Assembly (NCBI GenBank): GCA_008501735.1
Contig: QQUF01000038.1
Span: forward strand, 21,418 to 85,417
Length of the DNA stretch: 64,000 bases
Source of the DNA: Calditrichota bacterium
GTDB taxonomy: Bacteria; CLD3
Reading direction: 5' to 3'
Position numbers and translations under genes: made by a program
Shown here: piece after piece, positions 4,601 to 58,461 of the stretch
Position numbering within the stretch: the first letter of the stretch is position 1
Layout of the letters: the number at the start of each line of letters is the position of its first letter
The notes under the pieces: model-generated
The model's input: only the letters and a program-made list of their open reading frames with translations
Database searches by the model: none
Told to the model about the DNA's origin: nothing

Positions 4601-7600
4601 CCGACTGTTTACTGGTCGTTAATTTCAAGTTTGAGCGTTCCGGGAACTTACCCGATTTCCCTAAAAGTTACTGACACTTTGGGTGGAAATTCGGTTGCTT
4701 CGACAACTTTGGCGATTTCACCTTCTGCGGGAACAATGGCTTGTTTTGACGGCTCAAGCAGAATTGAAGTTCCGAATTTAATCAATAACCAAACTGCTTT
4801 CACAATCGAAGCGTGGTTTAATTTTACCGACAACAATTCAACGAGATGGATTTACGGAACTGGAAGCGGTTTCACTGACGTTGGGATTGCAGTCTCTTCA
4901 ACTTCAAACAATTTGGCTTACTACGGAAAAACTGCCACAAGTTCTTTTGTTGACCAACTTGGCTCAATTTCGCTAACAGCAGGAAGTTGGAATCACATTG
5001 CTTTTGTCTTTGACGGGACAAATTGGACTGGCTACTTAAACGGCGTTCAAGACTTCCAAATCACAGAATCGGGAACTGTAACAACTGTTTCAACTCAAGC
5101 CTTCGGACAAGGAAATTGGAATTCAGGCGAAGGTTTTTTGGGCGAACTTGACGAACTTAGAATTTGGGATTCAGCTCAAACTCAAGCACAAATTCAAGCA
5201 AGAATGAACTTGCCACTTCTCGGAAACGAAAGCAATTTGGTTGCTTACTACAATTTGAACCAAATTTCTGGTCCAACTGTGAACGACGTTTCAGCAAACG
5301 GAAACAGCGGAACTTTTGTCGGAACGGAATGTTTTGTTCCTTCGACAACTCCTCTTAGCGGTTCAACAACTTTCACGAACAACAACCCAACTTTGAGTTT
5401 TGTCGGAATAGGAGGTTTTGCAAATTCAATCGTTGAGCCTGACACAGGTTCTTCCGAAACAACTTTTCAATTTGCAATTGACTACTTCGATTCTGACGGA
5501 GATTTTCCTGCAATCGGCTTTCCGAAATTGCTCTTGGACTTCAACGGAGACGGAGATTTTCTTGACAACGAAGATTTGAATTTCACAATGTTTGAAGAAA
5601 ATCCTTCTGACACAACTGTAACAAACGGAAAACGCTACATTTATTTTGCAAATGGCTTGGCTGAATCTTCAAATTGGAAAACTCAAGTCATTGCTCAAGA
5701 CGTGAAAGGCGGAAGTTCTTCGACGGCGTTTTTGACAGAACCTTACATTTCAAACGACCTTTTGGATATTTCGATTTTTGCAAACGACATTAATTTTTCG
5801 TCTTTGAATCCGCAAGTTGGTGACACAGTTACAATTTCTGCAACAGTTCACAACAACTCGGATTTTAACGCTGAAAACTTTGTTGTTTCGCTTTACGAGG
5901 AAGACACTTTTGTTTCCTCTTACACGATTCCTTCGCTTTCTTACCACTCGCAAACAACGATTTCGTGGCAACACGTTTTTTCAGTTGATAATTTTTATCC
6001 GATGAAAATTGTGCTTGATGAATCGAATGTTTTGACGGAAGACAACGAACTTAACAACTTTGCGATTCGCCCTGTGCTTGTCGGAAATTACGTGATTCCC
6101 GGAAACATTGTCGTTCAAAACGACGGGCTTTCACCTTCGACAGTTTATCCTTACTCTACAGTGCGTGTTTTTGGAAACGCTCAGTATTCGGGAGTTTTCG
6201 GAAGTGATTTTGACGTTTCGGGTGCAACTGTGAATTTCCAAATTGTTGAAACAGGTGCAAGTTTTAGTGGTAACACAAACGGAAACGGCGATTTTGGAAT
6301 TTATTTCACAGCTCCAACTCCTGGAACTTATACAATTGTCGGCACAGTTACCGATTACACTTTAACTGGGAATTTCGGACCTTTGGCTCTGACTGTTTTG
6401 CCTTTGGCAAGCGGACCTGATTTGCATTGTGAAATTAATTTGAACAATTACAGTCCGATTGTCGGAAACACTGTTAGCGGAACCGCAACGGTTACAAATT
6501 CAGGCGTTGAAGCGGCAGGAGCTTTTAATTTCCGAATTGCAAATTGCGAAGGGCTAATTGCAAACCACACAATTTCAGGACTTGCTCCGAATTCTTCACA
6601 AACTTTTAATTTTACAAGCACTTTCCCAAATGTTGGTGGTTGCTCAGTCAGTGGTTTTGCAGACAACACAAACATCGTTTCAGAGCTTGTAGAAACGAAT
6701 AATTCTTCTTCAAAAGGTGTAAATGTTTTGCCTGACCAACCTGATTTGACACCAAGCAACAGTCAAATTTATGGAAGTTACCTAACAGGTTCGACAGTGA
6801 ATTTGAGTGCAAAAATCCAAAACATCGGCGGAATCGGTTCAGGGCAATTTGACGTGAATGTTTACGACAACGGAACTTTAATTCACACTGAAAGCATTTC
6901 TGCACTTGCAGCACAAAGTCAAACAAGTTTTAGTTTTTCAAACACTTTCACGACTCTTGGAAACCACGCAATTTCTGTGAAAGTTGATGAGCCGATTGGA
7001 AGCGGTTTTGTAACCGAGTGGAACGAAAACAACAACGTTTACACAGGTTCGATTAATGTTTACCAACTTCCACCTGTTTCACCGAACTTGACAATTTCAG
7101 GCTTGAGTGTCAATCCTGCAACTCCAACAAATCCCGGAAGTTTAGATTTGATTGCGACAATTTCTAACAACGGAAGCGACGGAATTAGTGTCGGTGATTC
7201 GATTGAACTGAATTTCACAGTTAACGAAAATGGAAATTCGACAACTTACACAGTTCTTGACACATTGGGTTTTGCAAAAAAATCATCAAAACAGCTCACC
7301 TTTACAATTCCAACTCCAGTTTTTGGAAACAATCATTTGTATGCTTCGGTTGATCCAAATAATTTGGTCAGCGAATCAAATGAAAATGACAACTTGCTTG
7401 ACCGACCTCTTTGCTGGGATTTTTACAACGGAGACATTCCGAACTCGAATTTATTTTGGGAAGTGAGCCATTTTTCAGGTGAAGAAGTGAACTTGAGTCT
7501 TGGACTTTACAACAACGGACTTTACACTGGAAGCACTGTTGAAAGTCGATTTTTCGTTGACGGAAATTTTGTTGGAAGCGACACGGAAACAAACATCACT

Positions 7601-40561: not shown

Positions 40562-41533
40562 ATGCCGCTAATTCAAAACTCAACTTACAACCCCCCAAGA
40601 TTTTTCTCAAATGGGCATTTACAAACGGTTTATCAAACGTTGTTTCGGAAAGTCGAAGGTGTAAAATATCAAAGGGAAAGAATCGAAACACCAGACGGAG
40701 ATTTTTTGGACTTAGATTGGTCATTGGTTGACTCCGAAAAATTAGTAATCTTAATTCACGGTTTGGAAGGAAGCTCGAATGCTGTTTACATCAAAGCAAT
40801 GGTTAAAATTTTGAACAAAAATGGTTTTGACACTGTTTCGATGAATATGAGAGGTTGTAGCGGAGCGTCAAACAAACTCCTTCGAGCGTACCACAGTGGA
40901 GCGACAGAAGATTTAGAAACAGTCGTTTCTCACATTTTAAAAACGAAACCTCAGAAGAAAATTGGTATTGTGGGTTTTAGTCTTGGTGGAAATTTGACTT
41001 TAAAATATTTAGGTGAACAAGGGGAAAAAGTTGCTCCAAAAATTTGTGGAGCAGTAACTTTTTCAGTTCCTTGTGATTTATTAGGTTCTTCTTTTGAGCT
41101 AAAAAAGCCAAAGTGTAAAATGTACACAAAACGCTTTTTGATTAGACTTGGTAGAAAAATGAAAATCAAATCAGAACAATTCCCAAATAAAATTGACTTT
41201 GAAAAAGTAAAAACTTTAAAAAATTTGAGTCAATTTGACGACTTCTTTACTGCACCTGTTCACGGGTTCAAAGACGCAGAAGATTACTACAAAAAATGTA
41301 GTTCAAAGCAGTTTTTACCTAAAATTCAAATTCCAACATTGCTTGTGAATGCTGACAATGATCCTTTCCTTAGTCAAAGTTGCTTTCCGATTGAGGAAGC
41401 AAAAGCTAATAAAAATTTTTCATTAGAAATTACCGATTCTGGAGGGCACGTTGGTTTTGTGAGTTTTTCTGAAAATGAATTTTGGTATGAAAAAAGAGCA
41501 GTGGAGTTTTTGAATTCTGTTATTGTAAATTAA
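40562..41533 (+). CDS. YheT-family alpha/beta hydrolase
   Basis: The 323-residue product matches the YheT/ABHD1-3 group: an N-terminal FFSNGHLQTVYQT, LIHGLEGSSNAVYI, MRGCSGASNK and the nucleophile elbow GFSLGGN. The acid is in VNADNDPFL and the His in DSGGHVGFV. Activity in this family is mostly untested, with esterase or lipase the default. It starts 5 bases after glgA. Its 3' end overlaps the end of the converging gene at 41520 by 14 bases. Confidence 0.88.
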   Translation: MPLIQNSTYNPPRFFSNGHLQTVYQTLFRKVEGVKYQRERIETPDGDFLDLDWSLVDSEKLVILIHGLEGSSNAVYIKAMVKILNKNGFDTVSMNMRGCSGASNKLLRAYHSGATEDLETVVSHILKTKPQKKIGIVGFSLGGNLTLKYLGEQGEKVAPKICGAVTFSVPCDLLGSSFELKKPKCKMYTKRFLIRLGRKMKIKSEQFPNKIDFEKVKTLKNLSQFDDFFTAPVHGFKDAEDYYKKCSSKQFLPKIQIPTLLVNADNDPFLSQSCFPIEEAKANKNFSLEITDSGGHVGFVSFSENEFWYEKRAVEFLNSVIVN

Positions 41534-43610
41534 AACCATAAGTGTACCTAAAATTCATAAAAAGCTCAGTATAGTCTTTTTTCTTTCCTTGCGTATCGAA
41601 GTTTGATAAACCAAAAACTGTTTCAAAAATCATATTTGAAAAAAAAGAATATTTTGTTCTGAATTCTGTACCGAACCTATTTGAGGATTCTGAATTTTGA
41701 GTTTTTGATGAAAAATCATTTTTGAGTTTCAAATTTAAATCCAAATTATAACTTTTTATTTTGTATCGAAAAGTGGTATCAATCGAGTTTTGTGTTTGCA
41801 AAGTTCCTAAAGATTTGGACTCAACGCTTAAATTTATATAACTCAAATTTACTATTAATGGGAAACTAAATTGCTCGGTTAATGTAAATCCAATTGCTCT
41901 AGAAGAGTTTTCGCTAGAAGGATTAATATTGTCACTTCTTTCATTATTCGAGAAATTGAAATTTATTCCGTGTCTCAAATTAAATGCTTGAAAGTTATAA
42001 TTAACACCAAAGTTGAAAGTTGAAATAGAGTCGTCACTTTCACGTAAACCAAGACTGTCTTGTTCACTTTTACGTTTTTGGTTTCTAAGCATCAAACTAA
42101 AGCTTGGTAAATCTATCCTAGGGAAAATGAGTAAATTTCCAGATATTACTTTTGTATTACGTGAAGTTATTTGGTTGTTGGATAAATTGTCATCATAATT
42201 TTCAAAACTTAATGAGGTAGTAATTTTTCGATTCAAAATTGAGAATCTGTCTTTTAGTAAATAGCCTTTTCTATCATTTCGCAGAAAATCATTTCCAAAG
42301 GAGTTATAGGAAGTTCCTATTCTTTTATATTCAGCAGTAATTAGATTAGTTAGGAATTGAATTTTCCCTCGACCAAAGTAAGCTGTTGAAGAACCTTCGT
42401 AAATTCTTACTGGGTAAGTACTAATGTTTATTGTAAAAAAGTCTTCGTATTCTTTTGGGTCAAAAGGAAGTGTTTCATCAAATAAAGAGTCAACATCTGC
42501 CTTAGAAATTGCTCCGTTTGAGATGTCATTAGTTGTGATTGAAATTGCAACACCGCTTTCAAACCTTAAAAAGTTGTTGTTCTTCTTAAATTCTAAAGTT
42601 AAGTCGCTCCCAACAACAATATTTTCTTTAGGTGAATCACCATTTTTAATTGAAGAAGTATCATCTTTTGCCTTGAAAAAAGTAATTCCAAATTCATTTT
42701 TATTTTCAGTTCCAAATGCTAATCTTCCTGAAGTAATGTTTCTTTGGAAGCTTCCGCCGACTACGTAAGTTGAATCATCTCGCAAATTTGCAGGAGGAAA
42801 TCCTGTTGTTGGGTCATACTCAAGAACCTCTCCTTCGATTCCCCTTTGGATTTCTCCTTTTGTAAATTCAAAGGATACTTTTTTATAACGAATTTTTGCG
42901 TCAAATCCCCTGACTCTTGTACCGCTTAATACTAAATCATCTAAAGAAACATTTGTATCTCCAAAGTAAAGTTCAAAGTAATCTGAAACCAAACCTACTT
43001 GAAAACGATTTCTTGGTTGGGCATTTTGGCTTTCTTCACTTGTTGTAAAAATGCGGATTGGGATTTGGAAGTTTTTATACTCTGCCAAGCCTATAAAATT
43101 AAAATTGTTTATTGAAGAAGGCTCTTGACGTAATTCAGAACCTCTTCCTCTAATACTTCCAGAACGAGAATTTATGTCAGTTTTTCCATTTATAGTCAAA
43201 CCATTTAACCAATATTTTGTTGGTAAAGAAGCAATCTTACTCATTCCTCCTGCAAATCCTTTTACTTCAAAACTCCAAATCATTGTCTCAATCTCTTTGC
43301 CTTCTAAATTTTTAGCTACGATAATTACTCGATGTTTTCCAGAAATTAGTGGTTCAAGATAAACGAAAGAAACATTTTTGTTTTGAATCTTTGATTTATC
43401 AGTAATTTCTTTGTCATCTATAAAAATTTTTGTTAGAGAAGAACTAAGGTTTTCTCCATTATTTAAATTTGCTGTGAAGAAAAACTCTCCAGATTTTACA
43501 ATTTTTGTTTGAGGTGATATAATTGCCCAATCTGAGCTTTGAGCAAAAATTTTCTGTAAAAAAAGCAAAGAAATGACAAAGGGTATTAGAATTTTATAAG
43601 AGTTTTTCAT
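41520..43610 (-). CDS. Outer-membrane beta-barrel protein with N-terminal Ig-like domain
   Basis: The start is taken at ATG 43610 (MKNSYKILIPFVISLLFLQ, a clear signal peptide); an in-frame TTG at 43625 is less likely. The roughly 696-residue product has an Ig-like domain after the signal (SPQTKIVKSGEFFFTANL). It then shows many alternating strands with arginine- and asparagine-rich turns. The region YFELYFGDTNVSLDDLVLSG followed by TRVRGFDAKIRYK resembles the first strands of large barrels and ushers. It ends FRYTYGFNLQ. No family was recognised. It is the last gene of the four-gene minus-strand cluster, after an inverted repeat that may reduce transcription into it. Confidence 0.7.
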   Translation of the reverse strand: MKNSYKILIPFVISLLFLQKIFAQSSDWAIISPQTKIVKSGEFFFTANLNNGENLSSSLTKIFIDDKEITDKSKIQNKNVSFVYLEPLISGKHRVIIVAKNLEGKEIETMIWSFEVKGFAGGMSKIASLPTKYWLNGLTINGKTDINSRSGSIRGRGSELRQEPSSINNFNFIGLAEYKNFQIPIRIFTTSEESQNAQPRNRFQVGLVSDYFELYFGDTNVSLDDLVLSGTRVRGFDAKIRYKKVSFEFTKGEIQRGIEGEVLEYDPTTGFPPANLRDDSTYVVGGSFQRNITSGRLAFGTENKNEFGITFFKAKDDTSSIKNGDSPKENIVVGSDLTLEFKKNNNFLRFESGVAISITTNDISNGAISKADVDSLFDETLPFDPKEYEDFFTINISTYPVRIYEGSSTAYFGRGKIQFLTNLITAEYKRIGTSYNSFGNDFLRNDRKGYLLKDRFSILNRKITTSLSFENYDDNLSNNQITSRNTKVISGNLLIFPRIDLPSFSLMLRNQKRKSEQDSLGLRESDDSISTFNFGVNYNFQAFNLRHGINFNFSNNERSDNINPSSENSSRAIGFTLTEQFSFPLIVNLSYINLSVESKSLGTLQTQNSIDTTFRYKIKSYNLDLNLKLKNDFSSKTQNSESSNRFGTEFRTKYSFFSNMIFETVFGLSNFDTQGKKKDYTELFMNFRYTYGFNLQ

Positions 43611-43664
43611 AACTTCAAATCCCAAATTTGTAGAAAAAGTTAAAATGAACCTTTAGGTTTAGGC

Positions 43665-43708
43665 ATTTAAGAGCTAACAGTTTGTCAAAACTCATTAACT
43701 CTTTTAAA
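43665..43708. repeat. Imperfect inverted repeat between two minus-strand genes
   Basis: Arms built from TTTAA, GAG, TAA and AGTTT on the left (43666..43683) pair in order with AAACT, TTA, CTC and TTAAA on the right (43688..43708), with small mismatches between blocks. It lies just past the stop of the gene at 43711 and before the start at 43610, so it may act as a weak terminator within the cluster. Confidence 0.4.
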
Positions 43709-43710
43709 GG

Positions 43711-45504
43711 CTATTTTTTCTTTTTAGCTTTAAGTTTTACAGCTTTCGATTTCTTACTCTTAACATCAAATTGGCTTATTGCTTCTATTTGAAAGTTGTA
43801 GATTTCCCCATATCTTAAAGAATCTGAAACCCAAACCCTAGATTCTTTTCCTAAAGTATTCGAGTCAGCGACAAGTTTGTCATTTTGGTAAATTTGGAAT
43901 CCTTTTAAATCTTGAATCTCTTTGTAATCCCAATTTAAAGTTACACGATTGCTGTCAACTTTGAATGGCCAAATCGAAATGTTTGGCATTTTTTGAGTTG
44001 GGACTAAAACTTCAATTGTTTCTGAAAGTTCACTTTCCAAACCATTTTTAGATTCACCAACAATTCTAAATTTCCAAACTGCAGATTTTAGATTTTTTAC
44101 TTCGTAAAGGTAAGAGTTAATTTTAATTAATGGAATACTCGCATCTTTTAGAATTTCTTCACTTGAAGGTCTGCTTGAATAAATTGAATAACCATTTGTA
44201 ACTTTATCACTCGGAGATTTTGTGTTCCAATTTAAATCAATGAAATTTTTGCCATTTTTGTTAATCCATTTTCCTTGTAAACCTGTTGGAGTTGGAGGGA
44301 TTTGTAAATCTGTGTAAATCAAAACCTTTTCCCCACTGAAAGTTGTGTAATCATTTTTTACAGCAATTACTCGGTAAGAATAAGTTTGTCCTTCAAGTTT
44401 TGAATGATTATCAAAAAACACTCTTTCATTAGGACTTATCAAATTTGAAATGGATTCAAGTTTATAAATTGAATCCAAAAAAGCCCTTTGAACGTGAAAA
44501 CCATCAATTTCTTTTTCCAAAGACTTATCAAATTTCCAATCAATTTTAACTTGAACTGAAGGGTTATAAACTTGTTGAATACTTATGATTTCGGGAGGTT
44601 TGATTTCAATAGGTTTCAAAGTTGGGTCAAAAACCACAGTTGTTTTCTTTCCCTCATTTCCGAAAAAATCCACAGGAGCAATTCCATAAGTGTAAATTGT
44701 ATTCTTTTCAATTTCTTCATCTAAAAAGAAAACTTCGACATCAACTTGAGAGTAATCACGAATTATGTTTTTACTGATTTTTTTGAATTCGCTCCCTCTT
44801 TTTTTACGGTAAATCTCGAATCCAGCAAGTTCTAAATCTTTAAATTTGGTTCGACTGTAATTCCAAAGAATTTGTAATTCTTTAGGCTCGATAGTTTTAG
44901 AAGTTCTTGCTGTAATTTCAAGCCCAAAATCAACTTTTGAACTTTTAGAGAATCTAAAAGTTGAAATTGGATTATTCGCCTCTTTCCCATTATTAACAGG
45001 AAATAAGCCATAAGTGAATGAACTCGCTTTAGGTAATTTTCTGTCAATTAATCCAAAACCTTCCATCAAAGCATAATCATAATCGTATCCGAATGAACCT
45101 TGAATACTTAAGAGTGCTTTTTTATCTTTGGTAATTATTGCTAAGTATTCCTCAGTAGATGCAGGAATTATTTGCTCACTTGCAATTAAAGTTTGGATTT
45201 TATTTTGTAGTCTTGCAATTTCATTTGTGTCTTTTTCAACATTGCTAAAATCTTTGTTCGCATTTATTTCAGGAGAAATTACAGTTTGGTTTAATTTAAT
45301 CCAATCAGAGTTTCCAACTTTTCTCTTGATATTAAAACCGTCAAGATTTGTCGACCAATTGTTGACTTGCCAAAGAAGTTTTACAAAATTGTCGTTACCA
45401 GAGCCACTTAAAGTTGCAAATTTATTTTGTCCAAGAATTTGGTTAGAAAAAAATACTATTAGGATTAAAGTAAAGATTTGAAAAAAATTATTTTTTAAAG
45501 ACAT
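43711..45504 (-). CDS. Secreted multi-FN3-domain protein
   Basis: The 597-residue product has a signal peptide (MSLKNNFFQIFTLILIVFFSNQILG). It then carries a series of fibronectin type III domains, recognised by recurring W..N...DGF.I.R and Y.Y.V.A signatures (VNNWSTNLDGFNIKRK, TYSYRVIAVKNDY, NWDYKEIQDLKGFQIYQ). At least four can be placed between residues 30 and 585. The C-terminus is Lys-rich (SKAVKLKAKKKK), with no type IX sorting domain. It lies 15 bases after the 945-residue gene and is probably cotranscribed with it. Confidence 0.75.
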   Translation of the reverse strand: MSLKNNFFQIFTLILIVFFSNQILGQNKFATLSGSGNDNFVKLLWQVNNWSTNLDGFNIKRKVGNSDWIKLNQTVISPEINANKDFSNVEKDTNEIARLQNKIQTLIASEQIIPASTEEYLAIITKDKKALLSIQGSFGYDYDYALMEGFGLIDRKLPKASSFTYGLFPVNNGKEANNPISTFRFSKSSKVDFGLEITARTSKTIEPKELQILWNYSRTKFKDLELAGFEIYRKKRGSEFKKISKNIIRDYSQVDVEVFFLDEEIEKNTIYTYGIAPVDFFGNEGKKTTVVFDPTLKPIEIKPPEIISIQQVYNPSVQVKIDWKFDKSLEKEIDGFHVQRAFLDSIYKLESISNLISPNERVFFDNHSKLEGQTYSYRVIAVKNDYTTFSGEKVLIYTDLQIPPTPTGLQGKWINKNGKNFIDLNWNTKSPSDKVTNGYSIYSSRPSSEEILKDASIPLIKINSYLYEVKNLKSAVWKFRIVGESKNGLESELSETIEVLVPTQKMPNISIWPFKVDSNRVTLNWDYKEIQDLKGFQIYQNDKLVADSNTLGKESRVWVSDSLRYGEIYNFQIEAISQFDVKSKKSKAVKLKAKKKK

Positions 45505-45519
45505 TATTTTTCTCCAAAA

Positions 45520-48357
45520 TTAAAATGTAAGGTCAACGTCAACGTCGCCAGAGTAGCTTTGGTAGTTAAAAGTTAAATTTCCATGTAACCAACCGTTTCC
45601 ATTGTAGGTTCCGACTGTTAATCTTCCATTTGCAGAAAGTCCGTGCAATCTGTAAATGTGCAATGGAATTTTTATATCCATTCGACCTGAAGCGTAGATT
45701 GAAACTGATATAGAGCCGTTTAAACCTGTTTGTTTTAAATTTGCTCGCACTTGTGCAGAAAGAAGAATTCTATAAGAACCCTTAAATCCAAATCCTGCCC
45801 AATCATCACTCCAATCTGCTGTCCAATAGGTTTCTGGATTAAATCCAGTTGGGTAAGTTGCGGAGTCACTCCAATTTGCAGAAGCCAAACCACTAATTGT
45901 TCCATTCATTCTTGAACTAGTACTTAAGCGACCATAAATATCAATTGCCCCATTACTCATTACAATTTTGTCGAATATTTTTCCGCCCATATTTTGGCCT
46001 TTTGCACGCCACCATCCTTGATAAATCCAAAAATCAACATTTAAATTATCGGTTTGAACAACTGACCCACTACTAGGAACTACAATATTTGTAGAAACAG
46101 AACCATAAATTTGTTCAGCTGGTAAAGAATAATTTACATTCAAATCTCCTGAAACGAAGGTATTGTTTTTTAGAGATGCAAAATTTCCATTTAATGTTAA
46201 GACAATGTTATTTCCAATTTCAATAATTATTTCACCTCCAACTTCACAAATGTCTGCTATATCTGCAATTTTAATTCCAACACCGACAAAGTATTGCCCT
46301 TCTTGTGGAGTAGAAGCTGCTAAACTATAATTAAAACCGACTTTCCCAGAAAGTTCCGTAATTTTCAGCCCTGAGTTTCCTAGTGGAATATTTGTACCAA
46401 TAGCTAAAGCAAGTGAACCGTAAACAAAATCAGTTTCAACACCGATTAAAATGCTTCCAGAAATACTTATTTTGTTTGCGAAGTCTCCTGAAAAATTACC
46501 ATTAAAACTATTTGAAGTGAATGTTGCATCAAAATGAACTTTTACTGGAGTTTTGTTGTAATCAGCTTCAATTTTTCCAACTGTAATTGAACCTCCTTGT
46601 GAGATTTCAAATTTATCAACAGCTACTCTTGCACCACCTTGACCAACAAAGTCAATTTTTACTTCTGCACTTAAAGACAGTTTGCTATTTGCATAACTTG
46701 CATCTGAAAGAGTAAAAGTGAAGGCTTTATACTTTACATTCCCACTTGCATTAAATTCTTTTAGTTCACCGTTTTCAATCTTAAAAGGATTTACTTCAAT
46801 TTTTACATCAAATTGATTATGCTTTGCTTTTAAATCACCTTCAATAGTAGTTATATCAAAATTTTCATCAAAATCGACAGTTAGGCCAAGTTCGTCTAAA
46901 GTCATTGAAAAGGCAGTAATATTTGAGGCTGAAATACTTGCTTGACAGTTTCCGCTACTAAAAGCTAATCCAAGAGTAAATTCTCCTGTTATTCCTTGCA
47001 TATTTTTTAAGTCAACTGATCCGTTTCCATCAGTAATTTCAAAATCCCCACTGATTGAGAAGATTACTCCTAAAGATAAATCATTCATCATAACTGTAAA
47101 CCCACCAGTGTTGTAAGTTGCTCCACCAACTGCTGTGAATGTTCCTGAGAAACTTCCGTCACTTCCAAGACTACCATTATTAACTTTTGCGATTGTTGTT
47201 CCCGCTTTGACAATTTCGATGTTGATATTAGAAACTCCACCAAAATCAAAATCTCCATTCCAGTCATTTCCACCACTAAAAGTAAAATTTACACTTCCAG
47301 TAACACCTCTTTTGACAATTGCTAAACCCCCAAGTATATTTTTATCTTGGTTTAGGTTAACATTGAGTCCAACTGTTCCGTTTAAGTTTCCAGAATTGTC
47401 AACTGTAAGAGAAACAGAAGTTGCTTTGAGGCTTAAAAAATTAATATCTGCGATAGCTTTGTTCCCATTCCAAGAAATTGTTACGTCTTTAAACTCACCA
47501 GTTTGGCAATTTTTCTTAAATGAAACATTTGCTTGAGTGAGATTTGCTCCTCTTTCTACAACGCCTTTCATTGTTAGTCCAAAAGAAGCATTTGTTGCAT
47601 TATAGCTACAAAACCCATCAGAATCAGGAGAGTCGAAATCAGGAGGGGAAGAAAAGTTTAAAGAAATTGGACCAAAAGTTTCACCTGTTTCAATTATATC
47701 ACATTTACAATCATTTACTTTAACGACTCCGTTTGCAGTGTAAGAAACTCCTTCGATCGTGAATTTGCAAGAAATCGGCTCTACTTTTGCCGTTGAGTCA
47801 ACAACTGTTACTTCAACAGTTCTTTGGTCAATATTTGTCAAAGTTATTCTGTTGCTTGAAGTCGTCCACTCATAACTCCCACCATTTGAAGGGAAAGTTG
47901 TTGAAGTAATTGAAACTGTTCCCATTTGGTCAACTAATGTCGTGTCAGGAATTTGGCATTTTATGCTATAAATTGTAAAATCTATTGTTTGTTGCCCAAC
48001 TTTTGTAGTATCGAACCCTTCACCAAAGTAATGCAAATTATAATCTCCGATAATACTTGCACTTTCAGTGTTTCCAGCCGTTGGACCACCAGTTGCTGAA
48101 ACTGTTCCTGTCCAACTTTTTGTTTCATTTGGACCCATCGAAAATTCGGGTGGATTGACAGAAATTGAGATTGAACCTGATGTGGAAAGAGTTACTGAGC
48201 CTTCTTCGTGTGCATCAGAAGTGTAACTTCCATTTCCTGTCCACGAACTTGTTTCTCCTGTTTGAGAACTATAATAAAGAGGTGATTGGGAAAAAGAATT
48301 ATTTGTTAATAATAAACAGGAGAGAATGAGAGCGAAATTTAAAAGTATTTTTTGCAT
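45520..48357 (-). CDS. Large secreted beta-strand-rich protein of unknown function
   Basis: The 945-residue product starts best at ATG 48357 (MQKILLNFALILSCLLLTNN), seven bases after AGGAG; the ATG two codons earlier is only one base from that site. After the signal peptide come an Ig-like region and a Cys-containing segment (NDCKCDIIETGE). Hundreds of residues of regular amphipathic strands with Gly/Asn turns follow (TLNGNFASLKNN, SGDLNVNYSLPAE). The pattern could be a long beta-solenoid or groove, but no family was recognised. Trp-rich stretches near the end (WTADWSDDWAGFGF) may bind carbohydrate; this is a guess. Confidence 0.7.
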   Translation of the reverse strand: MQKILLNFALILSCLLLTNNSFSQSPLYYSSQTGETSSWTGNGSYTSDAHEEGSVTLSTSGSISISVNPPEFSMGPNETKSWTGTVSATGGPTAGNTESASIIGDYNLHYFGEGFDTTKVGQQTIDFTIYSIKCQIPDTTLVDQMGTVSITSTTFPSNGGSYEWTTSSNRITLTNIDQRTVEVTVVDSTAKVEPISCKFTIEGVSYTANGVVKVNDCKCDIIETGETFGPISLNFSSPPDFDSPDSDGFCSYNATNASFGLTMKGVVERGANLTQANVSFKKNCQTGEFKDVTISWNGNKAIADINFLSLKATSVSLTVDNSGNLNGTVGLNVNLNQDKNILGGLAIVKRGVTGSVNFTFSGGNDWNGDFDFGGVSNINIEIVKAGTTIAKVNNGSLGSDGSFSGTFTAVGGATYNTGGFTVMMNDLSLGVIFSISGDFEITDGNGSVDLKNMQGITGEFTLGLAFSSGNCQASISASNITAFSMTLDELGLTVDFDENFDITTIEGDLKAKHNQFDVKIEVNPFKIENGELKEFNASGNVKYKAFTFTLSDASYANSKLSLSAEVKIDFVGQGGARVAVDKFEISQGGSITVGKIEADYNKTPVKVHFDATFTSNSFNGNFSGDFANKISISGSILIGVETDFVYGSLALAIGTNIPLGNSGLKITELSGKVGFNYSLAASTPQEGQYFVGVGIKIADIADICEVGGEIIIEIGNNIVLTLNGNFASLKNNTFVSGDLNVNYSLPAEQIYGSVSTNIVVPSSGSVVQTDNLNVDFWIYQGWWRAKGQNMGGKIFDKIVMSNGAIDIYGRLSTSSRMNGTISGLASANWSDSATYPTGFNPETYWTADWSDDWAGFGFKGSYRILLSAQVRANLKQTGLNGSISVSIYASGRMDIKIPLHIYRLHGLSANGRLTVGTYNGNGWLHGNLTFNYQSYSGDVDVDLTF

Positions 48358-48359
48358 TT

Positions 48360-49817
48360 TCATTCTCCTGAATTAGAGTTTTTAGGTATTCCAAAAACTT
48401 GCTCAAGCAAATTTTTAACATTTAGTGATGTTCCTTCCCACCTTAAAGTTACAGTCGCGAAATCTTGGATTTCACCGTACTTAGCAACGATTGCAATACT
48501 CTTTGGTCGATAAGCAGCAATGAAAAGACCATTTTCATTAATTGTTCCAGCATCAGAAGGAATGACCTTCCACTCGGGCTTAATGTTAATTAATTCATCA
48601 TTTTTATCATATCCTAGAGCTGTAAATAGAAAAGTACTTCCAGTATTTAGCTCAATCTCTTCAGGCAGAATTTCAATACTTTTTAGAGCGATTCCGCCAC
48701 TACCTGTTTCAGAATCTGAGCTTGTTTTTAATGTAAACCAAAAGACTTCACTACTCAAAATCTGCTCACCTTGACTTGTAGAGATGTGTGCAAAAATTTG
48801 CCAAGCGTAAGTTTTACCAGCTTTAAGTTCTTCAGCAAAATTTGGATAGAGAAAAGAAGTGTTTGATAACTCCTTTTGTTCAAAAATAGGTGTGTTTTCA
48901 GTAATTAATTTTGCAGAGGTTTGTCCCTCAGTAACTGGGTAAACAATCAAATCGTATGAGGTTGCTTTTGCAAACCATTGGAAAAATGGATTTGGGTTGT
49001 AGATTTCTTCGGGTTTCTGACTAATTGCATTCCCAGGAGCAATTACTTCTAATTCGGTTGTAGGATTTGTTGTTGTATTACTACCATCATCTTTGGCAAC
49101 ATTTTTTCCATTTTGGTCTTTTATTACAATGTCAATTATGTAATTATCAGGTGGTAAAATTCCAGTTGCAAGTGCGTCGTAAAGTAAATCTTCTCCATTT
49201 GGCGTTGAAAAGAAATCATCAAAATCTCTGTTTGTAAAACTTATAACTTGATTTGGTGCAACAGTCCCAAAATCTTTTATTCCTGTTACTAAACTTCCGT
49301 GTTTTTCAGAATTGAAGACTAAGTCTGCCTTTAATTTTCTTTCCAAATTATCATTTGTCAAAGTTGCAGTAAAAAGTAATGGTGCAGAAGAAATATTACT
49401 TGGGTCAAAATTAGAAATGTAAAGGACATTGACAGGAATCATATCAACTTGAAGGTCAACTCCTGAACTTGTCGGCTCAATGACCTCAAAAATATTTTGT
49501 GCAGAAGCAATCTCATTATTTGTTGTTATACTTAAATCTCTTGAACCAAGATTTGAACTTGCATCAATTGAAACTCTCGCAATAGCAGTTACACTACTTG
49601 AAATATTTAAACTTTCAATTGTTATCCCTTCACCAAAGCTTGCCGTAGAAATTCCATTGACAAAATTTGTGTTGCTACCACTGATTATCATATCTAGTGT
49701 TTCACCTTGTTCACCTGAGTTCGGAACAACGCTAATAATTTGTTGACTCAAAAGAACTTTTGGTAAAAAGGCTAAAATTAGGAAAGTCGAAAGTAATGAC
49801 TTTATTATAAGGTTCAT
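48360..49817 (-). CDS. Secreted protein with IPT/TIG and Ig-like domains
   Basis: The 485-residue product has a signal peptide (MNLIIKSLLSTFLILAFLPKVLLSQ). The first mature domain is IPT/TIG-like (ISVVPNSGEQGETLDMIISG, then FGEGITIESLNIS). The middle holds an FN3-like domain with FQWFAKATSYDLIVYPV and GKTYAWQIFAHIS. The C-terminal part is a BIG2-like domain (IEILPEEIELNTGSTFLF, TVTLRWEG). It lacks a type IX sorting domain. It is the first gene of the cluster, preceded by GGGAG about eight bases before the ATG, and its stop sits just before the next start. Confidence 0.75.
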   Translation of the reverse strand: MNLIIKSLLSTFLILAFLPKVLLSQQIISVVPNSGEQGETLDMIISGSNTNFVNGISTASFGEGITIESLNISSSVTAIARVSIDASSNLGSRDLSITTNNEIASAQNIFEVIEPTSSGVDLQVDMIPVNVLYISNFDPSNISSAPLLFTATLTNDNLERKLKADLVFNSEKHGSLVTGIKDFGTVAPNQVISFTNRDFDDFFSTPNGEDLLYDALATGILPPDNYIIDIVIKDQNGKNVAKDDGSNTTTNPTTELEVIAPGNAISQKPEEIYNPNPFFQWFAKATSYDLIVYPVTEGQTSAKLITENTPIFEQKELSNTSFLYPNFAEELKAGKTYAWQIFAHISTSQGEQILSSEVFWFTLKTSSDSETGSGGIALKSIEILPEEIELNTGSTFLFTALGYDKNDELINIKPEWKVIPSDAGTINENGLFIAAYRPKSIAIVAKYGEIQDFATVTLRWEGTSLNVKNLLEQVFGIPKNSNSGE

Positions 49818-50280: not shown

Positions 50281-50445
50281 TTAGAGTAGAGGTTTAATAT
50301 TTTGTGGGTTGTAATAAATTTCTTTTTCCCAAATCTTTAGAAAAACTTCTTGTGCAATATCTGATGCAAGTTCAGTGAAGTAAACAAAATTTCGAATTGA
50401 GTCAAAGTATTGGTCGTAAACGAGTTTAAAGTCTTCTTTTGTCAA
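50281..50445 (-). pseudogene. ECF sigma factor remnant (region 2 only)
   Basis: The minus strand encodes LLTKEDFKLVYDQYFDSI, then RNFVYFTELASDIAQEVF and LKIWEKEIYYNPQNIKPLL, then stops. This is region 2 of an ECF-type sigma-70 factor, including the DIAQEVFLKIWEK helix that binds the -10 element. The frame has no ATG (a TTG at 50445 is the only start-like codon), and nothing like region 4 follows in any nearby frame. Intact ECF factors have about 170-190 residues, so more than half is missing. A stem-loop 85 bases downstream may be the old gene's terminator. It is most likely a deletion remnant rather than a working small protein. Confidence 0.7.
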
Positions 50446-50500: not shown

Positions 50501-51499
50501 TTATTTTTTCTTTAAATCATTAATGCTGAAAGTTTCAACAGTTCCGTCAGGAAAAGTTTTTGTAGCCAATTCGTCGCAAGTCCCATCTCCGTAATCTATT
50601 GTTGCAATTACAACTCCATCTTTTAAAAATTGAATTGTTCCTGATACAGGATAATCACAGTTTGCATCTTTAATTATCGGATTGACAATCACTTTTTCAA
50701 AACCATCTTTTTCATTTTTATCATTAATGCTGAAAGTTTCAACAGTTCCGTTAGGAAAAGTTTTTGTAGCCCATTCGTCGCAAGTTCCATCTCCGTAATC
50801 AATCGTTGCCACAAGTGTTCTTCTGTTTTCGTAAATTTCAATAGTACCTGAAACGATGTAATCGCAACCATCAATTTTTACTAATTCTTTAGTAACAACG
50901 CGACGAAAATTATCATTTTTATCTTTTTCATATTTATTGCTTTTTCTATGTTTTCTACGCCATTCATCTAAATCAATAATTTTGTATTCGCCGTCAGAAC
51001 CAATAATTTCTGCCAAATTATCACAAGTTCCATCACCAAAATTTATTGAAAATTCTAACACACCGTTTTGGTAAAAATTAATTAATCCTGAAACAGGATA
51101 ATCGCAATCATCAGTTGTTACAATCGGTTCAATAATAACTTTCTCAAATTTCGAATCTCTGTCATCTCGATGCCTAAGTCGTAATTCAGTGCTTTTTCCG
51201 TCTTTACTAATCATTGCAATTTCATCATTCTCACCATTTCCAAAATCTACTTCCGCTTCTACTTTTCCATACATTTTATACTCAATTACACCAGAACTGT
51301 AAATCTCTCCTGAATTTGAGGTTAATTCTTTGGAGATATTTTTTTCAAAACCAGAAGCAGAAAAGTGAATGTTTGATTCTTCTGTAAAAGAGGCTTCGTT
51401 GAAAGTTTCTAAAGAATCAGAATCATTATTTTCACAAGATGCAAAAATGAACATTGAACTTACTGCTGTTAAGGCTAAGATTTTGAGTGAAGATTGCAT
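50501..51499 (-). CDS. Tandem-repeat lipoprotein of unknown function
   Basis: The 332-residue product has a lipoprotein signal peptide (ILALTAVSSMFIFASC, Cys 22). It is built of about four related units of the form CDYPVSGTI..., a FLKDGVV-type strand, ATIDYGDGTCDELATKTF and PDGTVETFSIND. The Cys pair in each unit may form a disulfide. The last two units are in exact 68-residue register and nearly identical in part. Between units 2 and 3 lies a charged insert (DEWRRKHRKSNKYEKDKND). DGDGTCD-like motifs suggest calcium or surface roles, but no function can be assigned. Similar repeat lipoproteins occur in Bacteroidota. Confidence 0.75.
   Translation of the reverse strand: MQSSLKILALTAVSSMFIFASCENNDSDSLETFNEASFTEESNIHFSASGFEKNISKELTSNSGEIYSSGVIEYKMYGKVEAEVDFGNGENDEIAMISKDGKSTELRLRHRDDRDSKFEKVIIEPIVTTDDCDYPVSGLINFYQNGVLEFSINFGDGTCDNLAEIIGSDGEYKIIDLDEWRRKHRKSNKYEKDKNDNFRRVVTKELVKIDGCDYIVSGTIEIYENRRTLVATIDYGDGTCDEWATKTFPNGTVETFSINDKNEKDGFEKVIVNPIIKDANCDYPVSGTIQFLKDGVVIATIDYGDGTCDELATKTFPDGTVETFSINDLKKK
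50519..50926 (-). repeat. Two 204-base tandem units in the lipoprotein gene
   Basis: The block ATTAATGCTGAAAGTTTCAA starts at 50519 and recurs at 50723, exactly 204 bases (68 codons) later. The first roughly 85 bases of the two units are almost identical, while the rest has diverged to encode different residues. This mosaic suggests recent duplication or gene conversion of one segment only. Confidence 0.8.
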
Positions 51500-55420: not shown

Positions 55421-58336
55421 CTATTTCAAGAAAGTCATTTTTATTGTTTTAGAAAAAGTGCCTGATTCTAATTTATAAAAATAAACTCCACTCGAAACTA
55501 AATTTCCAAGCTCATTTGTTCCATTCCAATTAACAGAACCAACAGATTTTTTCAATTCAAATTCCTTAACATTTTTACCGAGAATGTTGAAAATGGTGAT
55601 TTTACCTTTTTGGTTTTGCGGGATTTGATAATTAATCACTGTCGAGGGGTTAAAAGGGTTTGGGTAATTTTGCTCTAAAACGTAAGTTTTTGCCAAGTTT
55701 GAATTTTCATCTACATCAACAGTCAAACTCAAGAAATTTATTAAATTATCGAAAATTGTTTCAGGAGGAGTAACAGAAGCGGCAGTTTGTTTCAAAGAAG
55801 CTAAGTCAAAACCCATAAAAATTGCACGTCCAACAGAACTTTGTGGATTATGGAAAGCTGCAATCGCATCACCGTCAATTCCATTAAATCCATAACCTGC
55901 AATTGCCGTTGCGTTTCCAAAAGTCCCAATTATTTCTTTTGAACTTTGTAAGTTCTGGTCATTTGCTCCAACAGAATTCATTACCAAATTATCTAAAGGA
56001 GAGTTTGCAAATCCTTTCAAAAATCCAGAAGTTCCTGTAAAATCAGAGTCGTAATTCACACCAATTAAGTTCATTAGAGTTCCTCCACTCTCAGAAGAAG
56101 CAATGTTTTGACCAGAAATTAAAACTCTTCCACCTTGATTTAAAACATCAACTAAAAATTGTTCCTCAGCATTTGTCAAGACATCTCCAGTAACATTGTC
56201 AGAGTACCAAACAATAATTCTTGAACCACCAAGTTGTTGGTATTCATTCATTGATGGCAAAGTTCCGCCTGTTTCCCAATAAAAATAGGAATCACCGTTT
56301 GCGTTTGCTAATTGTTGGTAAATTGTATCAATTGCAGTTGATTCATCGTCGTCCATTAAAAGGATTTCAGCTGGATTTTCAGCATAATTAATTGATTGAT
56401 TTTGACCACCAACTACATTAAAAATTTGAGAATTTTTTTCAGGAAATGGAAAGTTAGGAATGAATTTTAAGTAGTAACTCTCTTCGGGTAACGTAAATGA
56501 GTAATTTCCATTAACGTCTGTAGAAACTGAACTTAAAAGATAATCGTCATCAGGAGAATTAGCATAGATTTCGATTTCTGCTTGAACAGAGTTACTTGAG
56601 TTTAAATCCGAAACTGAACCGCTAATAATCGCAGTAGGATTTGAAACCAAGGTAAAATCTTGGTTGATTGGATTCCCAGAAGTGAGTTGTGGAATGTTTG
56701 TGTAAGTTTGGGTTTGGTAACCAAAAGCTGAAACCTCCAAAGTAATTGTATCAACAAGTGGTTTTACAGTAAAAGAGCCATCAATTGGTGTTATAAAAGT
56801 TTGTTCGGTTTCAACAACTTTGAGTTGACCAAATGCAATTGGGTTTTGTGTGTTTGAATCTGTTAGGCTTCCATTCACAGCAAAAGGAGCAACTTCTCCA
56901 GCAGCAGCGAGAACGTCAATTCTTCCCATTCCAAAACTATTGTCATCTCCTGGAGAACCAAAGTCAACAGCTGTGTTTAAGAGTGCTAATTTAACTTCGT
57001 CAGGTGTTGCTAAGGGATTGATTTGTTTGAGTAGTAAAATTGCTCCAGAAACTAAAGGAGCTGAAAATGAAGTTCCATCAACAAATTCAGTTCCACCTCC
57101 TTGGTATGCTCCTTTTGCAACTTTGATGTTTTCACCTTGAGCACAAACTTCTGGTTTTATTCCATATAAAGCATTGTGTGGTGGTGGAACAATTGGTGAA
57201 ATCGTACAACCTGATGGACCTCGTGAACTAAAACCTGCAATTGTATTTTGGGTAACTTGCAAAGCTCCAACTGTAAAAGTATTGACAGAAGAAATCGCTC
57301 CGCCACCGACTTCACCAACAGTCTGCGGATTTGGTCCGTCGTTTCCAGCAGCATAAATCATTGTTACGCCAGTTAATTCGACGTTTGTTCTTAAATTAAA
57401 ATCATTGATTGTTGCACAACCACCAACATTTCCTCCGTAAGAATTGTTTGCAACATCAATTAGGTCAAAAACAGAATCAGGTAAAGTAATCATCCATTGC
57501 ATTGCTGTTTCTGCACTAAAAATTCCTTGTTGTCCGTCAGGAGTATGCTTTGAGCCAATCCAATTTGCTCCTGGAGCGATTCCAATTGTGTCAACTAAAG
57601 TATGACCAACAATCATACTTGTAACTCCTGTTCCGTGAGTCAAAATATTTTTATCTTCTGGAAAAGTTGTGCTTCCAACTGCATCAAACCAAGCATTAAA
57701 CCAATGATTTGGGTCTAATTGATTTCCATACCAATAATTTGCTAAATAAGGATGATTCCCGTCAACTCCTGAATCAATTGTCATTGAAACTCGTCCACTT
57801 CCGTTAAAACCTAAATCCCAAAGTTTATGAGCGTTTGTGGCTTTGATTGCTGCCGCAGTTTGTGAAGTTTGATTTTGATTCTTTTTTGAAGTTGAACTTA
57901 CAGGTGTAGGAATTTTGTAAATTGGCACTAAAGTTATTGTTGCGATTTCTGAAAACTCAGCTAATTGGTTAATCAATTCAAAGTTAGCACCAAAAATTTT
58001 AATTGTGTTTGGTCCCCAAAAACTCTCATAGCTTTTGAAATGATTTTTCTGAGATTCTAAAAACTTAATTGCATTTACTTGTGAATTTTTTGTAACTCTT
58101 TTCATTTCAGCTACAAGAATCTTTCTTCGTTCAAGTTTTGTAGCATTTTCTCGTTCAAATTTTGTCTTAAAAAATTCAGAATCAACTCGTTCTGCAAAAA
58201 GTAAGTGAAGGTCGAAAGTCTCACCAATTTGAGAGTTTCTGATTTTCTCTTGCAAAGGTTGACTTAACTCTGTTGAATAAACGTTAGTTCCAACTACTGA
58301 AACTAATGCTAAGGTCAAGAATTTGTTTTTTAACAT
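55421..58336 (-). CDS. Type IX-secreted subtilisin-like peptidase (S8)
   Basis: The start ATG 58336 is preceded by GGAG nine bases upstream and gives the signal peptide MLKNKFLTLALVSVVGTNVYS; an earlier in-frame position at 58366 is rejected. The 971-residue product has a prodomain (about 20-160) and the S8 domain with Asp 188 (IDSGVDGNHPY), His 234 (LTHGTGVTSM) and Ser 423 (DGTSFSAPLVSG). Two carboxypeptidase-regulatory-like domains follow at about 490-660. A region with LLMDDDESTAI and IIVWYSDNVTGDVLT may be a ThuA-like domain. The type IX sorting domain at the end runs from LEQNYPNPFNP to KMTFLK. Confidence 0.92.
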   Translation of the reverse strand: MLKNKFLTLALVSVVGTNVYSTELSQPLQEKIRNSQIGETFDLHLLFAERVDSEFFKTKFERENATKLERRKILVAEMKRVTKNSQVNAIKFLESQKNHFKSYESFWGPNTIKIFGANFELINQLAEFSEIATITLVPIYKIPTPVSSTSKKNQNQTSQTAAAIKATNAHKLWDLGFNGSGRVSMTIDSGVDGNHPYLANYWYGNQLDPNHWFNAWFDAVGSTTFPEDKNILTHGTGVTSMIVGHTLVDTIGIAPGANWIGSKHTPDGQQGIFSAETAMQWMITLPDSVFDLIDVANNSYGGNVGGCATINDFNLRTNVELTGVTMIYAAGNDGPNPQTVGEVGGGAISSVNTFTVGALQVTQNTIAGFSSRGPSGCTISPIVPPPHNALYGIKPEVCAQGENIKVAKGAYQGGGTEFVDGTSFSAPLVSGAILLLKQINPLATPDEVKLALLNTAVDFGSPGDDNSFGMGRIDVLAAAGEVAPFAVNGSLTDSNTQNPIAFGQLKVVETEQTFITPIDGSFTVKPLVDTITLEVSAFGYQTQTYTNIPQLTSGNPINQDFTLVSNPTAIISGSVSDLNSSNSVQAEIEIYANSPDDDYLLSSVSTDVNGNYSFTLPEESYYLKFIPNFPFPEKNSQIFNVVGGQNQSINYAENPAEILLMDDDESTAIDTIYQQLANANGDSYFYWETGGTLPSMNEYQQLGGSRIIVWYSDNVTGDVLTNAEEQFLVDVLNQGGRVLISGQNIASSESGGTLMNLIGVNYDSDFTGTSGFLKGFANSPLDNLVMNSVGANDQNLQSSKEIIGTFGNATAIAGYGFNGIDGDAIAAFHNPQSSVGRAIFMGFDLASLKQTAASVTPPETIFDNLINFLSLTVDVDENSNLAKTYVLEQNYPNPFNPSTVINYQIPQNQKGKITIFNILGKNVKEFELKKSVGSVNWNGTNELGNLVSSGVYFYKLESGTFSKTIKMTFLK

Positions 58337-58461
58337 TATAATTTTGCTCCGTGTAAAAATTTCCAATCCGTTATTTTTAAGGTAACCAAAAAAACAATTT
58401 TTTTATTTGTTAAAAATGACTAAGATTCGGCAGAAAATTCTATAAAAAAATAAAAATTGCG

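What the first reader, a model, noticed from the sequence alone, without database searches (positions are those of the whole stretch)
41520..49817. Four-gene cluster of secreted and outer-membrane proteins with no known family
Tightly packed minus-strand genes encode, in order, an IPT/FN3/BIG2 protein, a 945-residue beta-rich protein, a multi-FN3 protein and an outer-membrane barrel with an Ig-like domain. All have signal peptides and none has a type IX sorting domain. The pattern suggests a surface structure with its own outer-membrane partner. This is the strongest candidate for an undescribed system in the window.
Basis: inference. Interest (0 to 1): 0.6.

Follow-up and report, generated by a model that had tools for sequence, protein, structure and literature searches.

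The report
Split TANFOR-type cluster with outer-membrane barrel
Four neighbouring bacterial genes form a conserved set of exported proteins built around one large outer-membrane barrel, and barrels of the same family sit beside a known class of giant secreted Bacteroidetes toxins whose way out of the cell has never been found, so the barrel is a testable candidate for that missing exit or anchor.

Summary
A (48360-49817), B (45520-48363), C (43711-45504) and D (41520-43610) are tightly packed minus-strand genes with signal-like N-termini and no type IX sorting domain. D models as an Ig-like domain plus a 26-strand barrel (pLDDT 87). B is the only part without a relative of known kind.

The neighbourhood is conserved. 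Two Bacteroidota-type genomes carry A-B-C-D in the same order and orientation (B 43-44%, A 36-39%, C 31-35%, D 28% identical). Three more carry parts.

The D family forms three clades, each with its own gene company: (I) A-FecR-D-CHASE2/cyclase in about 78 loci from several phyla; (II) A-B-C-D, the window; (III) D-giant TANFOR protein-C in Bacteroidota (24 of 26 loci fetched). A's core matches the TANFOR+FN3 N-terminus profile to profile (98.9%, through the type I family). The window cluster is therefore a split, non-classical TANFOR-type locus. TANFOR proteins were described in 2020 as polymorphic toxins of unknown export route.

Best explanation: D anchors or exports a TANFOR-like surface protein (A) with modular cargo B and FN3 accessory C. 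Module and kinship are well supported (about 0.85). Export or anchoring is inference (about 0.5). No toxin domain was found here.

The parts
48360..49817 (-). Gene A, 485 aa: signal peptide, IPT-like domain, TANFOR-like + FN3-like core, Big_2-like domain, short C-terminal FGIP-type motif
   Evidence: homologues; core vs type I A family hhalign 100%, type I A vs TANFOR N-termini 98.9%
48717..49469 (-). A core, residues about 117-367: TANFOR-like then FN3-like domain, shared by all A-family proteins
45520..48363 (-). Gene B, 947 aa: beta-rich secreted protein with no database family; overlaps A by 4 bp
   Evidence: 43-44% identical full length to L256 and L255
47644..48363 (-). B N-terminal module, residues about 1-240, shared with proteins that have at least two other C-terminal regions
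43711..45504 (-). Gene C, 597 aa: multi-FN3 secreted protein
   Evidence: fn3 4.3e-07; same family follows TANFOR giants in Bacteroidota
41520..43610 (-). Gene D, 696 aa: outer-membrane barrel protein with N-terminal Ig-like domain
   Evidence: AlphaFold2 model, pLDDT 87, pTM 0.72; family of 80 loci
43260..43529 (-). D Ig-like domain, residues 28-117, predicted periplasmic
41526..43199 (-). D barrel, residues 138-695, 26 predicted strands

Best explanation
The cluster is a split TANFOR-type surface/secretion module. Shown: A, B, C and D are a conserved unit; A's core is a TANFOR-like plus FN3-like head; C is the FN3 protein that also follows TANFOR genes; D is predicted with high confidence to be a 26-strand barrel with an Ig-like domain; D-family barrels go with A-like or TANFOR proteins across several phyla. 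Inferred: all four are exported by Sec; D is inserted in the outer membrane with its Ig-like domain in the periplasm; A (and B carried by or docked to A) is held on, or passed through, D to the cell surface, with C as periplasmic or surface accessory; B's modular C-terminus does the variable job (surface contact or effector). In the sister type I operon the same A-D pair is joined to a periplasmic FecR protein and an inner-membrane CHASE2 cyclase, so the state of the surface complex could be reported to the cell as a cyclic nucleotide; the window cluster lacks that branch.
For: Complete A-B-C-D in the same order and orientation in L255 and L256; identities A 36-39%, B 43-44%, C 31-35%, D 28%. 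D tree of 68 proteins: type I, type II (window) and TANFOR-type each one clade, SH-aLRT 97, 99, 100. In 24 of 26 Bacteroidota loci picked by the D profile alone, a TANFOR giant is adjacent (23 directly downstream, gap mostly about 10 bp); in 15 of 17 with room the next gene is C-family. TIGR02542 found in 19 of 40 genomes with a D hit and 0 of 40 without. A family vs TANFOR+FN3 N-termini, hhalign 98.9% over 256 columns; vs TANFOR alone 95.4%; controls under 10% except one 35-column match at 57%. L279 and L199 have the order giant-C-D, matching A(+B)-C-D. D's best full-length fold match is the 26-strand MtrB sheath, Z 17.9 over 448 residues. No T9SS sorting domain on any member although the genome has T9SS cargo. 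B has one shared N-domain and at least three kinds of C-terminus. A published precedent has the cargo in the gene next to the TANFOR gene (PMC7073777).
Against: No direct evidence of export, binding or location. Window A scores no hit to TIGR02542 itself. Window-type A against the TANFOR domain alone is weak (20.9%); the link runs through the type I A family. B shows no convincing similarity to the bodies of TANFOR giants (best 58%), so 'split giant' is an argument from gene order, not from B's sequence. No toxin domain was found in A-D. B's model is unusable (pLDDT 33). The intact four-gene cluster is rare: 2 of 189 genomes in the family searched and one in the window's small phylum.
Confidence: 0.55

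Rival explanations
1. Static surface structure: D only anchors an adhesive or S-layer-like coat of A, B and C; nothing is secreted through it and there is no cargo.
For: A and C consist of Ig-like and FN3-like domains typical of adhesins; no toxin domain in B; the Foldseek list for D includes S-layer barrels SlpA/SDBC.
Against: Kinship with TANFOR loci, whose proteins carry toxin domains (PMC7073777); modular B C-termini.
Confidence: 0.22
2. Signalling receptor: as in type I, the D-A pair senses something at the surface and passes it inward; the window version signals to one of the CHASE2 cyclases encoded elsewhere in the genome.
For: Type I operons join A, FecR and D to a CHASE2 cyclase: FecR next to D in 67 of 69 loci with room, cyclase next in 65 of 72; the genome has two CHASE2 cyclases elsewhere.
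Against: The window cluster has no FecR or cyclase, nor does any type II locus seen; no FecR or cyclase was detected beside the barrels of the TANFOR-type loci, with one weak distal cyclase match in L272.
Confidence: 0.13
3. Type IX secretion cargo: A-C leave through T9SS, as proposed for TANFOR proteins, and D is unrelated to export.
For: Jana et al. 2020 found T9SS cargo enriched near TANFOR genes and T9SS in more than 95% of TANFOR genomes (PMC7073777); T9SS-tagged proteins exist in this genome.
Against: No sorting domain on A, B, C or D; a dedicated barrel accompanies the family in every clade.
Confidence: 0.08
4. Extracellular electron conduit: D sheaths a cytochrome as MtrB sheaths MtrA.
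For: MtrB is D's best Foldseek match.
Against: A, C and D of the window have no cysteine and B's nine cysteines form no CxxCH heme motif; no cytochrome gene in the cluster.
Confidence: 0.02

Closest known systems
TANFOR (TIGR02542) polymorphic-toxin loci of Bacteroidetes (Jana, Salomon, Bosis 2020, PMC7073777)
   Same: TANFOR-like + FN3 head at the N-terminus of a Sec-exported protein, an FN3 gene next to it, cargo sometimes in the adjacent gene, no sorting domain, and (found here) a D-family barrel next door
   Different: Window A does not hit TIGR02542; head and body are separate genes (A, B); IPT-like and Big_2-like domains added; no toxin domain found; the sections of the paper read here name no barrel
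Type I operon A-FecR-D-CHASE2/class III cyclase (found here; no description found in the papers searched)
   Same: Homologous A and D; one copy of A-FecR-D also exists in this genome (contig C50)
   Different: FecR and cyclase replaced by B and C; window D lacks the extra N-terminal domain
LysM/FecR + CHASE2 histidine kinase 'BiofilmReg' operon (Burkholderia contaminans, PMC5192318)
   Same: FecR protein next to a CHASE2 sensor, as in type I
   Different: Kinase instead of cyclase; no A- or D-like gene described; not the window's arrangement
MtrB 26-strand sheath (PDB 6r2q, PMC7198977); also LptD and FimD/PapC ushers
   Same: Very large outer-membrane barrel of the size used to house or pass proteins or polymers; 26 strands in MtrB and predicted in D
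   Different: No sequence relation detected in the PDB profile search, no heme partner; D has a predicted periplasmic Ig-like domain

Membership tests
TANFOR polymorphic toxin class | TIGR02542 domain at the N-terminus | tested here: not met
   No NCBIfam hit for A at E<=1 other than an unrelated weak one
TANFOR polymorphic toxin class | TANFOR-like + FN3 lineage by profile comparison | tested here: met
   Type I A family vs TANFOR N-termini 98.9%; window-type A vs the same N-termini 97.4% and vs type I A 100%
TANFOR polymorphic toxin class | C-terminal or adjacent toxin domain with immunity gene | tested here: not met
   No toxin or immunity family in A-D by Pfam or NCBIfam
TANFOR polymorphic toxin class | FN3 protein gene in the neighbourhood | tested here: met
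   C; C family follows the giant in 15 of 17 loci; COG3401 enriched in PMC7073777 Table 1
T9SS substrate | Por_Secre_tail / CHU_C sorting domain | tested here: not met
   None at E<=1
T9SS substrate | Export depends on the T9SS translocon | not testable with these tools
   Needs mutants
Type I A-FecR-D-CHASE2 cyclase module | Homologous A and D | tested here: met
Type I A-FecR-D-CHASE2 cyclase module | FecR protein and CHASE2 cyclase in the operon | tested here: not met
   No such gene in the cluster; cyclases lie on contigs C55 and C16
MtrAB-type conduit | Multiheme cytochrome partner (CxxCH) | tested here: not met
   No CxxCH in A-D
MtrAB-type conduit | 26-strand barrel | tested here: met
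   model only

The most novel reading that the evidence does not exclude
D-family barrels are the translocon of an undescribed two-step protein export route, dedicated to TANFOR-type proteins, found across Bacteroidota, Ignavibacteria, Calditrichota, KSB1, Neomarinimicrobiota and Gemmatimonadota relatives, with one branch (type I) that reports secretion or surface state to a CHASE2 cyclase.
Probability: 0.2. Interest if true: 0.88.

Novelty: new variant of a known kind. Interest (0 to 1): 0.64.

Why it matters
TANFOR proteins are a described class of Bacteroidetes toxins with no known exit from the cell. The barrel found beside them, invisible to domain-based surveys because no database family searched here covers it, makes the export or anchoring question directly testable by one gene deletion. 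The same barrel ties a TANFOR-like surface protein to FecR and a CHASE2 cyclase in many poorly studied phyla, giving a candidate surface partner to a sensor domain whose signal is described as unknown (PMC5192318).

Tried and rejected
Family libraries (Pfam, NCBIfam) for A, B and D: nothing above cut-off. B against TANFOR giants by HMMER and hhalign: inconclusive, best 58%. B against solved structures: no match. B structure with a two-sequence alignment: pLDDT 33, discarded. B in 386 genomes, most from other lineages: only one 51-residue match at E 9.5e-4. G094 looked like another type II locus but is not. Electron conduit rejected for lack of heme motifs. D's profile hit to peptidylarginine deiminase concerns the extra N-terminal domain of type I members, mostly absent from window D. 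B's weak YhdP match (E 0.027) was not taken as evidence. In the VIA-align list smaller porins tie with MtrB in Z but over fewer residues, so no family is assigned from fold. PHROGs and PADLOC were not searched.

Full report
OBSERVATION. The four minus-strand genes are real and compact: A 48360-49817 (485 aa), B 45520-48363 (947), C 43711-45504 (597), D 41520-43610 (696 from the ATG). A and B overlap by 4 bp, B and C are 15 bp apart. All four start with signal-peptide-like segments and have no other membrane helix. None carries a type IX sorting domain, although the same genome has T9SS-tagged proteins, one of them 5.6 kb away in the window. Pfam and NCBIfam give nothing above cut-off for A, B and D; C has fn3 and a marginal DUF7359 hit.

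D IS A BARREL. AlphaFold2 on window D with 33 homologues gives pLDDT 87 and pTM 0.72: an Ig-like domain (28-117), a loose linker, then 26 strands (138-695) with short turns on one side and long loops on the other. With the N-terminal Ig-like domain in the periplasm, the even strand number fits a closed barrel. Foldseek ranks MtrB first (6r2q_B, E 1.6e-9), with FimD/PapC ushers also high; the second aligner gives MtrB Z 17.9 over 448 residues at 4.8 A, tied in Z with smaller porins that align over fewer residues. MtrB is a 26-strand sheath around a cytochrome, described as similar in size to the secretion barrels LptD and FimD (PMC7198977). Similar fold shows no function; here no heme motif exists.

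TYPE II: THE CLUSTER IS CONSERVED. A scan of named species genomes with the D family found two loci with the window's type of A directly before D: L075 (labelled Bacteroidetes bacterium) and L076 (Chitinophagaceae bacterium). Searching 396 genomes of L076's order found three more. In L256 and L255 the whole A-B-C-D set occurs in the same order and orientation, with full-length identities to the window of 36-39% (A), 43-44% (B), 31-35% (C) and 28% (D). In L254, B and D are adjacent; in L076, B lies divergently beside A. The full cluster is rare: 2 of 189 genomes in the family of L256's genome.

TYPE I: A WIDESPREAD SISTER. Of the 80 loci from the scan, 78 belong to another arrangement: A-FecR-D-CHASE2 cyclase, from Ignavibacteria, Calditrichota, KSB1, Neomarinimicrobiota, Balneolales and others. 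FecR is next to D in 67 of 69 loci with room, the cyclase in 65 of 72, A upstream in 46 of 62. The window's own genome has an A-FecR-D copy on another contig without a cyclase, and relatives in its class have D followed by the cyclase. G014 has a cyclic-nucleotide-binding protein next to A.

TYPE III: TANFOR LOCI. Weaker D hits in the order of L076 are barrels of about 570 residues. Fetched by D score alone, 24 of 26 loci have a giant protein with a TANFOR N-terminus beside the barrel, 23 of them directly downstream and within 150 bp. After the giant comes a C-family FN3 protein in 15 of 17 loci with room. TIGR02542 was found in 19 of 40 genomes with a D hit and in 0 of 40 without; the two groups were not matched for genome size. 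Locus L279, and L199 outside that set, have the order giant-C-D, which parallels A(+B)-C-D.

A IS TANFOR-LIKE. The type I A family aligns with the TANFOR+FN3 N-termini of the giants at 98.9% (256 columns) and with the TANFOR part alone at 95.4%; window-type A aligns with the same N-termini at 97.4% and with type I A at 100%; controls stay under 10% but for one 35-column match. Window A alone does not reach TIGR02542 and window-type A against the TANFOR part alone is weak (20.9%), so I do not file it as a member of that class.

TREE. In a maximum-likelihood tree of 68 D proteins, type I, type II and the TANFOR type are each one clade (SH-aLRT 97, 99, 100); the root is not known.

B. B has no relative of known kind. 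Its first 240 residues recur in L076, L254, L252 and L253 with two other kinds of C-terminal region, a modular layout. In L076 and L252 the short form is followed by a related small exported protein. Its model failed, and similarity to the bodies of TANFOR giants is not established.

MECHANISM. Shown by sequence and prediction: a conserved module; D a barrel; A a TANFOR-like head; C the same FN3 partner. Inferred: Sec export of all four; D in the outer membrane; A, with B, anchored on or exported through D. Jana et al. 2020 showed TANFOR proteins to be polymorphic toxins, noted that cargo can sit in the adjacent gene, found FN3 domains enriched nearby and left export open, suggesting T9SS (PMC7073777). 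The word 'barrel' does not occur in that paper's main text, and a domain-based survey could not see one without a database family. No toxin domain is seen in the window, so B may equally be a surface protein.

VERDICT. A new variant of a known kind: a split TANFOR-type locus with its barrel. The broader result is the constant company of this barrel family and TANFOR-like proteins. Confidence about 0.85 for module and kinship, about 0.5-0.55 for the anchoring or export mechanism.

Noticed in passing
window 50281-50436 (minus): Remnant that reads like an ECF sigma factor (EDFKLVYDQYFDSIRNFVYF...DIAQEVFLKIWEKE..., then stop) about 460 bp upstream of gene A; looks like a decayed regulator gene (recognised by eye, no family search).
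   Followed up: partly
L025 6094-10324 (own genome, contig C50): Type I paralogue A-FecR-D without a cyclase, followed by a nucleotidyltransferase; the same gene order as in relative G001 (L026).
   Followed up: yes
L076 5716-8268 and L252 4736-7329: Short B proteins each followed by a related 301-312 aa exported protein (E 1.7e-57), a possible two-gene effector or accessory pair.
   Followed up: partly
L200 and L199: Further arrangements: D (533 aa) and A (621 aa) next to a CHASE2 cyclase on the other strand; and a 1632-aa A-like protein, then C, then D (534 aa).
   Followed up: no
window 55421-58366 (minus): Subtilase with carboxypeptidase-regulatory domain and T9SS sorting domain.
   Followed up: no
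window 1649-10270 (plus): 2873-aa surface protein with six CARDB stretches, PKD, laminin-G and FN3 domains.
   Followed up: no
window 50501-51499 (minus): 332-aa lipoprotein-like protein with repeats of a D-Y-G-D-G-T-C-D motif and no family match.
   Followed up: no
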